Shown: one piece after another, positions 1 through 63,225 of the stretch
Layout of the letters: every line of letters starts with the position of its first letter
Numbering within the stretch: position 1 is the first letter of the stretch
Translations under genes and position numbers: made by a program
Notes under the pieces: generated by a model
What the model saw: only the letters and a program-made list of their open reading frames with translations
The model's database searches: none
Told to the model about the DNA's origin: nothing
Assembly: GCA_013519935.1 (NCBI GenBank)
Contig: JACDUA010000003.1
Coordinates: forward strand, 1 to 64,000
DNA length: 64,000 nt
Origin: Ectothiorhodospiraceae bacterium WFHF3C12
GTDB taxonomy: Bacteria; Pseudomonadota; Gammaproteobacteria; Nitrococcales; Nitrococcaceae
Direction: 5' to 3'

Positions 1-14
1 TGTGGGAGATGAGA

Positions 15-23
15 TAAAGCGGC
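15..23 (+). repeat. Left subterminal inverted repeat of the IS110 element
   Basis: TAAAGCGGC is the exact reverse complement of 1388-1396. It lies 6 bp inside the predicted left end. Confidence 0.8.
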
Positions 24-48
24 GCGGTTGAAGGATACGGAAGTGAGA

Positions 49-119
49 GGTCAACCTCCCGGGTATTTTCAACACGAGGTCGCGCAAGCGCCTCAAAAGC
101 AGACCCTGGGAGGTTGACC
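49..119 (+). promoter_or_regulatory. Stem-loop sequestering the transposase ribosome binding site
   Basis: GGTCAACCTCCC at 49-60 is perfectly complementary to GGGAGGTTGACC at 108-119. GGG (61-63) with CCC (104-106) extends the stem past a one-base bulge. The 3' arm contains the GGGAGG Shine-Dalgarno (108-113) and ends at the base before the ATG at 120. In an RNA reading in from outside, the ribosome site would be fully paired, which would keep transposase synthesis low. Translational control is inferred; the pairing is visible. Confidence 0.7.
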
Positions 120-1151
120 ATGAACAACGTTGGCATCGATGTAGCGGACCGGGCAAGTGCGATGTGCGTGGTCGATGAGCACGGCGAGCAGCTCGGGCAG
201 TGCGAGTGCGCGACCCAGGCCTCGGCGCTGGCCGAGGAGCTGGCTCGGTGGCCGCTCTCGCGGGTGATCATTGAGTCGTCGCCGCTGGCGGAGTGGGTGG
301 CCTCGGTGGCCGAGCGCTGCGGTCACGAAACGGTGATCATCGATGCCCGGGCGGCGCGGCATTTGGTGAACTCGAAGAAGAAGACCGATGCGCGGGATGC
401 CTACACGTTGGCGCGGCTTGGTCAGAGTGGCTGGTATGTGGAGGTTCACCGCAAGTCGGCCTCGGCGCGGGTGATGCGCAGTCGGTTGCAGGCGCGCCAG
501 GGTCTGGTGCGCACGCAGAAGGCGATGGCCGCCCAGATCCGGGGGCTGCTCAAGGCGCACGGGGTGCGCGTAGGCCGGGTGGCCGAGGGTGAGTTTGCCC
601 AGCGGGTGCGTGAGCTCGCCGGTGCCGAGGTGCCGCAGCTGCTGGAGAGCCTGGAGGCGCTGCTCGAGCTCTGGGCGCGGGCCGGCGAGCAGGCCAAGGC
701 GCTGAAGCGCTCGATGCAGCGCGCCCGTGTCGAGCCCGAGCACGAGGCGGTGGCCGAGCAGCTGCAGAGCGTGCCGGGGGTAGGCCCGCTGGTCAGCCGG
801 GCGTACGTGGCGACGGTCGATGATCCGCGGCGCTTTCACCGGGCCGAGGCGGTGCCGGATTACCTGGGGCTGTCGCCGAGCGTGCACCAGACGGGTGAGA
901 CTGAATACCGTGGGCGGATCACCAAGGAAGGCGATGAGCTGCTGCGCTGGCACTTGGTGGAGGCCGCCCATTCGCTGCTCAACCGGGGGCCGGACTGCGC
1001 ACTCAAGCGCTGGGGCGAAGCCCTTCGCCAGCGCAAGGGTGGGGCCAAGGCCAAGGTGGCCGTGGCGCGCAAGCTGGCGATGCTGCTCTATCGGCTGTGG
1101 TTGAGCGGGGAGCGATTCGACACGCAGCGCGGCCTGGCGACGGCGAGCTGA
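120..1151 (+). CDS. IS110-family DEDD recombinase/transposase
   Basis: A 343-aa recombinase that, guided by a bridge RNA, moves the element through a circular intermediate. The N-terminal RuvC-like DEDD domain shows GIDVAD (Asp7), the Glu of IIESS (about 49), and TDARDA with the last two Asp (near 90). A coiled segment follows. The C-terminal Transposase_20 domain includes SVPGVGPL and LGLSPSVHQTG...GRITKEGDELLRW. The ATG at 120 is chosen because GGGAGG lies 6 nt upstream; a TTG at 114 in the same frame overlaps that site. One oddity is that the Tnp-domain position usually written SG, holding the catalytic Ser in IS621, reads TG here. No frameshift or internal stop is present, so the copy looks recent or intact. 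Confidence 0.95.
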   Translation: MNNVGIDVADRASAMCVVDEHGEQLGQCECATQASALAEELARWPLSRVIIESSPLAEWVASVAERCGHETVIIDARAARHLVNSKKKTDARDAYTLARLGQSGWYVEVHRKSASARVMRSRLQARQGLVRTQKAMAAQIRGLLKAHGVRVGRVAEGEFAQRVRELAGAEVPQLLESLEALLELWARAGEQAKALKRSMQRARVEPEHEAVAEQLQSVPGVGPLVSRAYVATVDDPRRFHRAEAVPDYLGLSPSVHQTGETEYRGRITKEGDELLRWHLVEAAHSLLNRGPDCALKRWGEALRQRKGGAKAKVAVARKLAMLLYRLWLSGERFDTQRGLATAS

Positions 1152-1179
1152 GCTGCCATCGCGACAGAGCCCATGGCTG

Positions 1180-1345
1180 GCTAAGCCGATAGCCGAGTTC
1201 CAAGCGGGAGCGGTTTAAGGGTTCGGTCACGCGGACCAAGAACGCGCCTTGGGGCAGACGACCCCGTGTGGGAGATCCTGGCCGCGTGCTCCGAACCCAT
1301 CTTGCGGCGCACAGCGACCGCGTAGAGAAGCCTGAAGACCCTTAA
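1180..1345 (+). ncRNA. Predicted IS110 bridge RNA with target- and donor-binding loops
   Basis: The non-coding right end, where IS1111-type elements encode their RNA, folds into two internal-loop hairpins. Target loop: CGCGG (1230-1234) pairs with CCGCG (1282-1286), and an inner GGGG/CCCC hairpin lies at 1251-1265. Its two strands carry ACGCGCCT (1242-1249) and TGTGGGAG (1267-1274), which together spell both halves and the AG/CT core of the occupied 14-nt site. Donor loop: an inner GCGGCGC...GCG-A-CCGC hairpin (1304-1321) is flanked by CATCT (1298-1302) and TAGAGAAG (1323-1330). These match the element's left end with core (1-strand complement) and its right end with core (1395-1402). The RNA ends are approximate; the guide matches are direct sequence observations. 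Confidence 0.75.
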
Positions 1346-1375
1346 GCCGCAGTCCCTTCTACACAATCCGGGCGG

Positions 1376-1381
1376 TTGACA
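1376..1381 (+). promoter_or_regulatory. Outward-facing -35 box in the IS right end
   Basis: A perfect TTGACA points out of the element, 19 bp from its right end. In the circular form (right end-AG-left end) the hexamer 17 bp downstream would be GAAGAT; in the present insertion it is GAAGGC. IS110-family circles are known to build a junction promoter this way. The -10 partner is weak, so the call is tentative. Confidence 0.4.
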
Positions 1382-1387
1382 TCCGGG

Positions 1388-1396
1388 GCCGCTTTA
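1388..1396 (+). repeat. Right subterminal inverted repeat of the IS110 element
   Basis: GCCGCTTTA is the exact reverse complement of 15-23, 4 bp inside the predicted right end. Confidence 0.8.
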
Positions 1397-1400
1397 GAGA

Positions 1401-1700
1401 AGGCGCGTCCCCGCGGCGACGGCTTTCGGATGCCCGAATCGCTGCGGCGGGGACGATCGATCGGCCAAACCGGTTCGCGGCCAGAGGCCGCTCCTACAAC
1501 ACCCCGGGTGCCCCGGGGTATGGCGAATCTTGCGGGAGGCGCGTCCCCGCGGCGATGGTTTGCGGATGCCATGATCGCGGCGAGGACGCCGCTCCCACAG
1601 CAGGATTCCACCCCGGCGGGTCTGCGAAGGCTGTGGGAGGCGCGTCCCCGCGGCGATGGCTTTCGAATGCCCGGATCGCCGCAGGGATGCCACTTCGAAA
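1401..1700. repeat. Cluster of REP-like palindromes (half of one displaced by the IS)
   Basis: Three units of the GGCGCGTCCCCGCGGCGA type occur at 1402, 1537 and 1639. They alternate with inverted partners such as GGCGAGGACGCCGCTCCCAC (about 1579-1598), so adjacent units can fold into long hairpins, as in BIME/REP pairs. A second palindrome type, TTCGCGGCC-AGA-GGCCGCTCC (about 1471), resembles Pseudomonas putida REP ending in GCTCCTAC. The first unit lacks its TGTGGG half, which lies at position 1 on the other side of the IS. No gene is seen in this stretch. Confidence 0.8.
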
Positions 1701-10379: not shown

Positions 10380-11225
10380 TTCGCCCCGGCGCTCGTAACC
10401 GATTGTGGGAGGGGCGTCCCCGCCGCGATTGTTGCCGCAGCCCCGTAGGGTGGATTAGCGAAGCGTAATCCACCATGCCCCCAAATCACTGCCCCGGCGG
10501 CGATGTCCCATCGCTTCGGTGGATTACGGCTCCCGCCTGATCCACCCTGCCCTCCGTGGCTCACGGGCTCGAATGACGACATAAGGCCGGCGAGACGACT
10601 CGCGGCCCCATCGCCGCGAGGACGCGCCTCCCACAACTCTTCGATTCCCATCGGGGTAAGCACCACGCTGTGGGAGCCGCGTCACAGCCGCGAGTCCTCC
10701 CACGGCCCTTCGATTCGCCTCGGGGCCCGTAACCGGCTGTGGGAGCGGCGTCCCCGCCGCGATTCCTCCCACGGCCCTTCAATTCGCCTCGGGGCCCGTA
10801 ACCGATTGTGGGAGGGGCGTCCCCGCCGCGATTCCTCCCACAGCCCTTTAATTCGCCTCGGGGCTCGTAACCGGTTGTGGGAGGGGCGTCCTCGCCGCGA
10901 TTACCCCCACAGCCCTTCGATTCGCCCCGGGGCTCGTAACCGATTGTGGGAGGGGTGTCCCCGCCGCGATTACTCCCACAGCCCTTTCATTCGCCTCGGG
11001 GCCCGTAACCGGCTGTGGGAGCGGCGTCCCCGCCGCGATTCCTCCCACGGCCCTTCAATTCGCCTCGGGGCCCGTAACCGGTTGTGGGAGCGGCGTCCCC
11101 GCCGCGATTACCCCCACAGCCCTTCGATCCGCCTCGGGGCTCGTAACCGGTTGTGGGAGGGGCGTCCTCGCCGCGACTGCTATCCGGAGACTCCGGCGTA
11201 ACGGGCCGGGTTAATGGACATCCAT
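10380..11225. repeat. Tandem array of REP-like palindromes (69-bp period)
   Basis: TGTGGGAG starts at 10739, 10807, 10876, 10945, 11014, 11083 and 11152, giving spacings of 68, 69, 69, 69, 69 and 69 bp. More diverged units lie at 10404 and 10671. Each unit holds a hairpin (TGTGGGAG-GGGCGTCCCCGCCGCGA...CTCCCACA) followed by a spacer beginning GCCCTTCGATTCGCC and ending GTAACCGG. Unit differences are few, so the array is young. Reading frames cross it only because 69 is a multiple of three. It separates the signalling operon from tadA (convergent ends) and contains no gene. Confidence 0.85.
10446..10690. repeat. Composite repeat, copy A
   Basis: It begins with the hairpin GGTGGATTAGCGAAGCGTAA followed by TCCACC. 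It continues through GCTTCGGTGGATTACGGCTC, GATCCACC, TGGCTCACGGGCTCGAATGA and CGACAT, to an inverted REP unit (ACGCGCCTCCCACA at 10622-10635) and a direct unit near 10671. The same order recurs twice between guaA and guaB (13455 and 13783). The GTGGATTA hairpin is a widespread proteobacterial intergenic repeat. Confidence 0.7.
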
Positions 11226-56383: not shown

Positions 56384-56903
56384 GGCGGGAGTCTACCAGC
56401 CGGGCGGGCGCCCGGTACCGCCAAGGGTTATCGGCGGCCTGTGGGAGGCGCGTCCCCGCGGCGACCGGTTGCGGCATGGCCATCGCGGCGGGGTCGCCGC
56501 TCCCACAACTGCGACTATGCCCTGCGGCCGGCCGAAGGGCTGTGGGAGGCGCGTCCCCGCGGCGATGGGTGCGCCATCGGTTCGCGGCCAGGGGCCGCTC
56601 CTACACCCGCCGCCGGTCCGCCAAGGCGGATCGGAGGAATGTGGGAGGCGCGTCCCCGCAGCGATAGCTTCCGGATGCCCCTTTCGCGGCGGGGTCGCCG
56701 CTCCCACAACTGCGACTATGCCCCGCGGCCGGCCGAAGGGCTGTGGGAGGCGCGTCCCCGCGGCGATGGGTGCGCCATCGATTCGCGGCCAGGGGTCGCT
56801 CCTACACCGCTGCCGGTACCGTCACGGCGGGCCGGAGGCCTGTGGGAGGCGCGTCCTCGCGGCGATCGCCCGGGCGTACGCGCCGCACATTCGGGGGTGA
56901 AGC
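56384..56903. repeat. REP-like array with a duplicated 201-bp higher-order unit
   Basis: TGTGGGAGGCGCGT occurs exactly at 56440, 56541, 56640, 56742 and 56841, spacings 101, 99, 102 and 99. Alternate gaps carry different partners: an inverted unit GGGGTCGCCGCTCCCACA, then TTCGCGGCCAGGGGCCGCTC of the second REP type. The two-unit block 56440-56640 is therefore repeated at 56640-56841 with few differences. No gene is seen in this stretch. Confidence 0.85.
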
Positions 56904-62699: not shown

Positions 62700-63225
62700 G
62701 CCAGGCCTGTTCGCGGCCAGGGGCCGCTCCTACGCCCGCTGCCGGTATCGTCACAGCGGAGCGGAGGAATGTGGGAGGCGCGTCCCCGCGGCGACGACTT
62801 TCGGATGCCTCTTTCGCGGCGAGGACGCCGCTCCCACAAAGGGTCCGGCCCCGAGGCTCAACGAAGACCTGTGGGAGCCGCGTCCCCGCGGCGACGACTC
62901 TCAGATGCCTCTTTCGCGGCGGGGTCGCCGCTCCCACAGCCGGATCAGGCCCCGAGGCTTAACGAAGACCTGTGGGAGCCGCGTCCCCGCGGCGACGACT
63001 CTCAGATGCCTCTTTCGCGGCGAGGACGCCGCTCCCACACCCGGATCCGGCCCCGAGGCTCAACGAAGCCCTGTGGGAGGTGCGTCCCCGCGGCGATAGC
63101 TTTCGGATGCCTCTTTCGCGGCGGGGTCGCCGCTCCCACAGCCGGATCCGGCCCCGAGGCTTAACGAAGGCCCGTGGGAGGCGCGTCCCCGCGGCGACGG
63201 CTCTCGGATGCCGACTGCACGGCGG
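62700..63225. repeat. Tandem REP-like array, 101-bp period
   Basis: (C/T)GTGGGAG occurs at 62770, 62870, 62971, 63072 and 63173, spacings 100, 101, 101 and 101. Each period carries a forward unit GCGTCCCCGCGGCGA, a TTTCGGATGCC/CTCAGATGCC link with TCTTTCGCGGCG, an inverted unit ending CGCTCCCACA and a spacer CGGCCCCGAGGCT-AACGAAG. A TTCGCGGCCAGGGGCCGCTC element lies at about 62709. No gene is seen between 62526 and 63231. Confidence 0.85.

What the first reader, a model, noticed from the sequence alone, without database searches (positions are those of the whole stretch)
1230..1345. A complete IS110 bridge RNA can be read from the sequence, with guides matching both the occupied target and the element ends
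The right-end non-coding segment holds two internal-loop hairpins. The first carries ACGCGCCT (1242-1249) and TGTGGGAG (1267-1274), which together specify TGTGGG-AG-GCGCGT, exactly the 14-nt site rebuilt when the IS is removed. The second carries CATCT (1298-1302; 6 of 8 matches when extended) and TAGAGAAG (1323-1330; 8 of 8), matching the element's left and right ends with the same core. Guide order, 14-nt length and CT core on the opposite strand all agree with the IS621 bridge-RNA mechanism. Four independent guide matches arising by chance within 100 nt is very unlikely.
Basis: partly seen in the sequence, partly recalled or inferred. Interest (0 to 1): 0.9.

Follow-up and report, generated by a model that had tools for sequence, protein, structure and literature searches.

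The report
IS1111 element with REP-targeting bridge RNA

Summary
Window 7-1402 is an IS1111-group (IS110 family) insertion sequence. Its gene (120-1151) matches the IS110 "RNA-guided transposase" models, and an RNA-forming segment (about 1210-1350) follows it. The two target guides match the rebuilt site TGTGGG-AG-GCGCGT 8/8 and 8/8; none of 20,000 shuffles had both. All six IS ends in the genome (three left flanks, three right flanks) fit this site. The intact 14-mer occurs 130 times in this genome, once in one relative's genome, and in none of 21 others of the family. Relatives settle the matter. A 60% identical transposase in another genus carries guide AGACCGCT and sits at AGCGGTCT, abundant in that genome and absent here. 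Across 11 element types from the phylum, each RNA fits its own target better than the others' (0 of 100,000 permutations). Three corrections apply: the left donor guide (6/8) is weak alone (24% of shuffles), the RNA extends beyond 1230-1345, and the guide order relative to the gene is the IS1111 order, the reverse of IS621. RNA-guided IS1111 elements and REP-targeting by them are published, so this is a new member of a known kind.

The parts
7..1402 (+). IS1111-group insertion sequence, from core AG (7-8) to core AG (1401-1402); one AG belongs to the target
   Evidence: six identical IS ends in the genome; same ends in relatives
1..8 (+). left half of the occupied target, TGTGGG-AG (contig edge)
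   Evidence: three other contigs have the same left half
1401..1408 (+). right half of the occupied target, AG-GCGCGT
   Evidence: three right flanks
120..1151 (+). tnp: IS110/IS1111 DEDD transposase/recombinase, 343 aa; D7, E52, D90, D93; TG (T258) at the catalytic SG position
15..23 (+). left subterminal inverted repeat TAAAGCGGC
1388..1396 (-). right subterminal inverted repeat (GCCGCTTTA on +)
1210..1350 (+). bridge RNA / seekRNA segment: closing stem P1 1210-1222 with 1338-1350, target hairpin P2, donor hairpin P3
   Evidence: folds; compensatory changes in P1
1242..1249 (+). [quoted passage not shown]
1251..1265 (+). apical hairpin between the two target guides (GGGG 1251-1254 / CCCC 1262-1265)
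1267..1274 (+). [quoted passage not shown]
1295..1302 (+). left-end donor guide ACCCATCT, 6/8 against LE AGATGAGA (7-14); weak alone
1304..1321 (+). donor hairpin P3 (GCGG/CCGC) between the donor guides
1323..1330 (+). right-end donor guide TAGAGAAG, 8/8 against RE 1395-1402
1376..1402 (+). TTGACA (1376-1381) + 17 nt + GAAG; with AT of the left end this would form a promoter at the circle junction
   Evidence: junction sequence; conserved spacing in relatives; function inferred
49..119 (+). 5'-UTR hairpin burying the GGGAGG ribosome-binding site of tnp
   Evidence: kept in relatives
1632..1645 (+). intact copy of the target 14-mer 230 bp right of the IS (one of 10 in the window, 130 in the genome)

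Best explanation
Window 7-1402 is an IS1111-group element of the IS110 family. Transcription, probably strongest from a promoter formed when the ends join in the excised circle, gives tnp mRNA and a downstream non-coding RNA (about 140 nt). One internal loop of the RNA carries two 8-nt guides that pair with opposite strands of the target TGTGGG-AG-GCGCGT. The second hairpin region carries guides for the element's own joined ends TAGAGA-AG-ATGAGA. The recombinase, bound to the RNA, brings both DNAs together and exchanges strands at the shared AG core. This puts the element, always in one orientation, into one position of a REP-like repeat of this host. Shown here: the element, the guides, the target at all ends, the guide-target covariation, the fold. 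Inferred from published work on relatives: transcription, RNA binding, circle intermediate, strand exchange.
For: Family models. Guides exact and rare in shuffles. Three left and three right flanks agree. 130 intact sites, 0 for the reversed control. Host-specific repeats: this 14-mer 130 here, 1 in G008, 0 in 21 other family genomes; G008's site 19 there, 0 here. The right target guide changes with the target between genera. In 11 element types the own RNA-target fit beats permutation, 0 of 100,000, and still does without the window. Shared architecture with guides in loops and two-sided changes at 10 of 12 P1 positions. The published IS1111 rules (PMC11187229, PMC11208160) match: RNA downstream of tnp, subterminal repeats, top-strand complement first.
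Against: No expression data. The left donor guide is 6/8 and does not follow the donor in relatives (64 of 120 permutations as good). No Rfam family reaches threshold. In some distant relatives one of the two guides is only 5-6/8.
Confidence: 0.94

Rival explanations
1. The transposase protein alone recognises the REP palindrome, and the guide-like strings are remnants of REP sequence or chance.
For: Other IS families reach REP sequences through the transposase itself (PMC1525189). The host REP is abundant, so REP-like strings could be copied into the IS.
Against: The matches are exactly 8 nt long on each strand, end at the core and are not extended; they lie at the same place in a conserved fold; they change with the target in relatives, including L056 (target AGCCTGAA, guide TTCAGGCT 8/8).
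Confidence: 0.03
2. The downstream RNA is mainly a regulator of tnp expression, like Ssr9 proposed for ISPpu9, not a guide.
For: ISPpu9, a REP-targeting IS110-family element with an AG repeat at its ends, has a downstream sRNA reported to counteract an activator of tnp (PMC8450116), and tnp here has a 5'-UTR hairpin that buries the ribosome site.
Against: A regulator would not need to match the insertion target and covary with it. Both roles could coexist.
Confidence: 0.02
3. The element is a decayed or inactive copy whose RNA no longer acts.
For: The transposase has Thr instead of Ser at the nucleophile position.
Against: TG is a recorded natural form of this motif in IS1111 transposases (PMC11187229). 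The frame is open, all copies are identical where compared, and guides and ends are intact.
Confidence: 0.1

Closest known systems
IS1111-group elements with seekRNA (ISEc11, ISKpn4, ISPa11)
   Same: DEDD transposase of about 340 aa, RNA segment downstream of tnp, subterminal inverted repeats, top-strand complement before bottom-strand complement in the RNA, promoter expected at the circle junction; ISPa11 also targets a REP
   Different: Different guides and target. The recognisable subterminal repeat here is 9 bp where 11-13 is usual; the spacing is the usual one if an A/C mismatch is counted as the repeat's first position.
IS621 (IS110 group) bridge RNA
   Same: Two-loop bridge RNA, two guides per loop sharing a 2-nt core, REP target, core CT on one strand
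   Different: RNA is downstream rather than upstream of the gene; guide order relative to the gene is reversed; donor guides lie in a multiloop; transposase only remotely similar (E 5e-7, C-terminal part)
ISPpu9 of Pseudomonas putida
   Same: REP insertion giving an AG repeat, downstream small RNA, 5'-UTR structure covering the ribosome site
   Different: Sequence relationship not tested here; its sRNA was described as an sRNA sponge, not as a guide; an Asr9-like antisense RNA was not examined here

Membership tests
[quoted passage not shown]
   both over Pfam cut-offs; NF033542 'IS110 family RNA-guided transposase' 222 bits, cut-off 140; D7, E52, D90, D93 invariant with relatives
IS110 family | SG motif (S nucleophile) in GL-P----S(t)G | tested here: met
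   GLSPSVHQTG: the TG form, recorded for IS1111 members
IS1111 group | long non-coding region downstream of tnp | tested here: met
   251 nt after the stop codon (1152-1402) versus 111-113 nt before the start codon
IS1111 group | subterminal inverted repeats, 7 + 3 bp terminal extensions | tested here: met
   TAAAGCGGC / GCCGCTTTA, 9 bp perfect here, longer in a close relative; same end geometry as relatives with GTAACGGGCC repeats
IS1111 seekRNA | RNA with a top-strand complement 5' of a bottom-strand complement, overlapping at the core | tested here: met
   1242-1249 then 1267-1274, 8/8 each, sharing AG
IS1111 seekRNA | RNA is made and copurifies with the transposase | not testable with these tools
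   needs RNA sequencing or purification
IS110/IS1111 bridge RNA | guides follow the insertion site in relatives | tested here: met
IS110/IS1111 bridge RNA | donor guides match both element ends | tested here: inconclusive
   right end 8/8, and 8/8 with a changed base in L060; left end 6/8 and not better than permutation
Rfam families | match above gathering score | tested here: not met
   no family in the window

The most novel reading that the evidence does not exclude
A lineage of IS1111 elements is repeatedly re-addressed, guide by guide, to the REP repeat family peculiar to each new host genus: the left guide stays near the conserved REP head TGTGGGAG while the right guide tracks the host-specific REP stem. 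The bridge RNA would then be adapting to host repeats as safe insertion sites.
Probability: 0.45. Interest if true: 0.5.

Novelty: new member of a known kind. Interest (0 to 1): 0.33.

Why it matters
It is a clean natural example, readable from one genome, of an RNA-programmed recombinase with a fully matching 14-nt address that exists about 130 times in its host. With its 60% relative it gives a natural retargeting pair (right guide changed at four of eight positions, left nearly constant), useful for studying how these guides evolve and as a further candidate recombinase.

Tried and rejected
Rfam scan: nothing. The genome-contig scan gave one distant hit, Sphingomonas L044, without clear ends. 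Plasmids gave nothing at E 1e-60 and viral contigs gave no relative. RNAalifold on a MAFFT alignment of four ncRNAs gave a poor consensus because the stems differ too much to align, so single folds with guides kept unpaired were compared instead. Realignments for a covariance model were no better, so no model was built. In one search the hand-set P2 arms of G406 were out of register; only its P1, apical and P3 counts are used. A first guide-target matrix had a coordinate error for the window row and was replaced. The 'chance' reading was rejected by shuffles and permutation.

Full report
What is there. Window 7-1402 is an insertion sequence. Its gene (120-1151, +) codes for 343 residues that pass the Pfam cut-offs for DEDD_Tnp_IS110 and Transposase_20 and NCBIfam's 'IS110 family RNA-guided transposase'. 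It has short subterminal inverted repeats (TAAAGCGGC 15-23, GCCGCTTTA 1388-1396) and 251 non-coding bases after the gene, which places it in the IS1111 group rather than with IS621. The IS lies at a contig edge: window base 1 is base 1 of contig C92.

The observation. The two target guides match the rebuilt site TGTGGG-AG-GCGCGT 8/8 each and share the AG core. In 20,000 dinucleotide shuffles neither exact guide occurred in more than 0.9%, and both never occurred together. The right-donor guide is 8/8 (0.3% of shuffles). The left-donor guide is 6/8, which 24% of shuffles reach. 'Four independent matches' therefore overstates the case, but three remain strong.

The target is real. Six IS ends occur in the genome, all on contig edges: three right flanks (C92, C50, C39) and three left flanks (C152, C157, C166). 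The right flanks read AGGCGCGTCC and the left flanks TGTGGGAG, in otherwise different sequences; this fits at least three insertions whose identical bodies broke the assembly. The intact 14-mer occurs 130 times in the genome and the reversed control 0 times. It heads a REP-like repeat often facing an inverted partner (TGTGGGAG ... CTCCCACA), and the genome has six genes of the Y1_Tnp family to which REP-associated transposases belong. Of 23 genomes of the family only G008 has it too, once.

Guides follow targets. Genome G008, of another genus in the family, has three copies of a 60% identical transposase. They sit at GTGGGAG / AGCGGTCT, and their RNA has AGACCGCT at the homologous place: 8/8 for their site, 4/8 for this one. 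GTGGGAGCGGTCTC occurs 19 times in G008 and 0 times here. G406 and G310 (56-58% identical) fit 7/8. For the more distant L056, taking the 8 nt before the apical hairpin as guide gives TTCAGGCT, which fits its right flank AGCCTGAA 8/8. Across 11 element types the best ordered pair of guide matches averages 13.3 of 16 for the own target and 11.1 for others' targets; 0 of 100,000 permutations reach the own sum, and the result holds without the window element (wobble-weighted run). The window's own fit, 16 of 16, is the best of all. The core is the same dinucleotide on both sides in all 11 (AG in ten, AC in one).

Fold. The segment 1205-1350 folds 3.6 standard deviations better than shuffles. With guides held unpaired, three element types share one architecture: closing stem P1, hairpin P2 whose internal loop carries the two target guides around a GGGG/CCCC hairpin, and hairpin P3 flanked by the donor guides. 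P1 is fully paired in all three, with two-sided changes at 10 of 12 positions. Published IS1111 bridge RNAs also place donor guides in a multiloop (PMC11208160).

Guide order. In IS1111 seekRNAs the complement of the top strand comes first; in the IS110 group the order is reversed (PMC11187229). Here the top-strand complement ACGCGCCT comes first.

How it probably works. Joining the ends would bring TTGACA (1376-1381), a 17-nt spacer and GAAG|AT together as a weak promoter reading into tnp and the RNA; the spacing is kept in relatives. Junction promoters are published for ISEc11 and ISEc21. The RNA-bound recombinase would then join the circle to the REP at AG. These steps are inferred. A strong 5'-UTR hairpin (-42.6 kcal/mol, z -5.0) buries the ribosome site of tnp, as reported for ISPpu9 (PMC8450116).

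Standing. RNA guidance of IS1111 elements, REP-targeting by IS110-family elements (PMC1525189) and natural retargeting (PMC11187229) are all published. This is a new, unusually clean member. What is of some interest is the host-matched pair of guides in two genera of one family.

Noticed in passing
window 49-119: Very stable 5'-UTR hairpin (15-bp arms, 93% complementary, z -5.0) that buries the GGGAGG ribosome site of tnp; a similar inverted repeat and an inner ACGAGGTCGC...GCGCCTCAA hairpin are kept in G008 and G406.
   Followed up: partly
window 891-893 (T258 of the transposase): Thr stands where most relatives and IS621 have the catalytic Ser; the TG form is recorded in IS1111 transposases, but no tested activity of it was found in the passages read.
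   Followed up: partly
L046 1234-1404 (minus strand): One of the three G008 copies has an 18-nt tandem duplication in the target loop that doubles the left guide, and its left target differs at one base from the consensus.
   Followed up: no
window 56412-56866, 62770-63212, 10669-11176: Tandem arrays (periods about 200, 101 and 69) built from REP-like units TGTGGGAG...; the first contains intact target 14-mers about every 100 bp.
   Followed up: no
G000 contigs C127, C167, C140, C96, C105, C136: Six Y1_Tnp (RAYT-like) genes in this genome, possible movers of the REP family that the IS uses as target.
   Followed up: no
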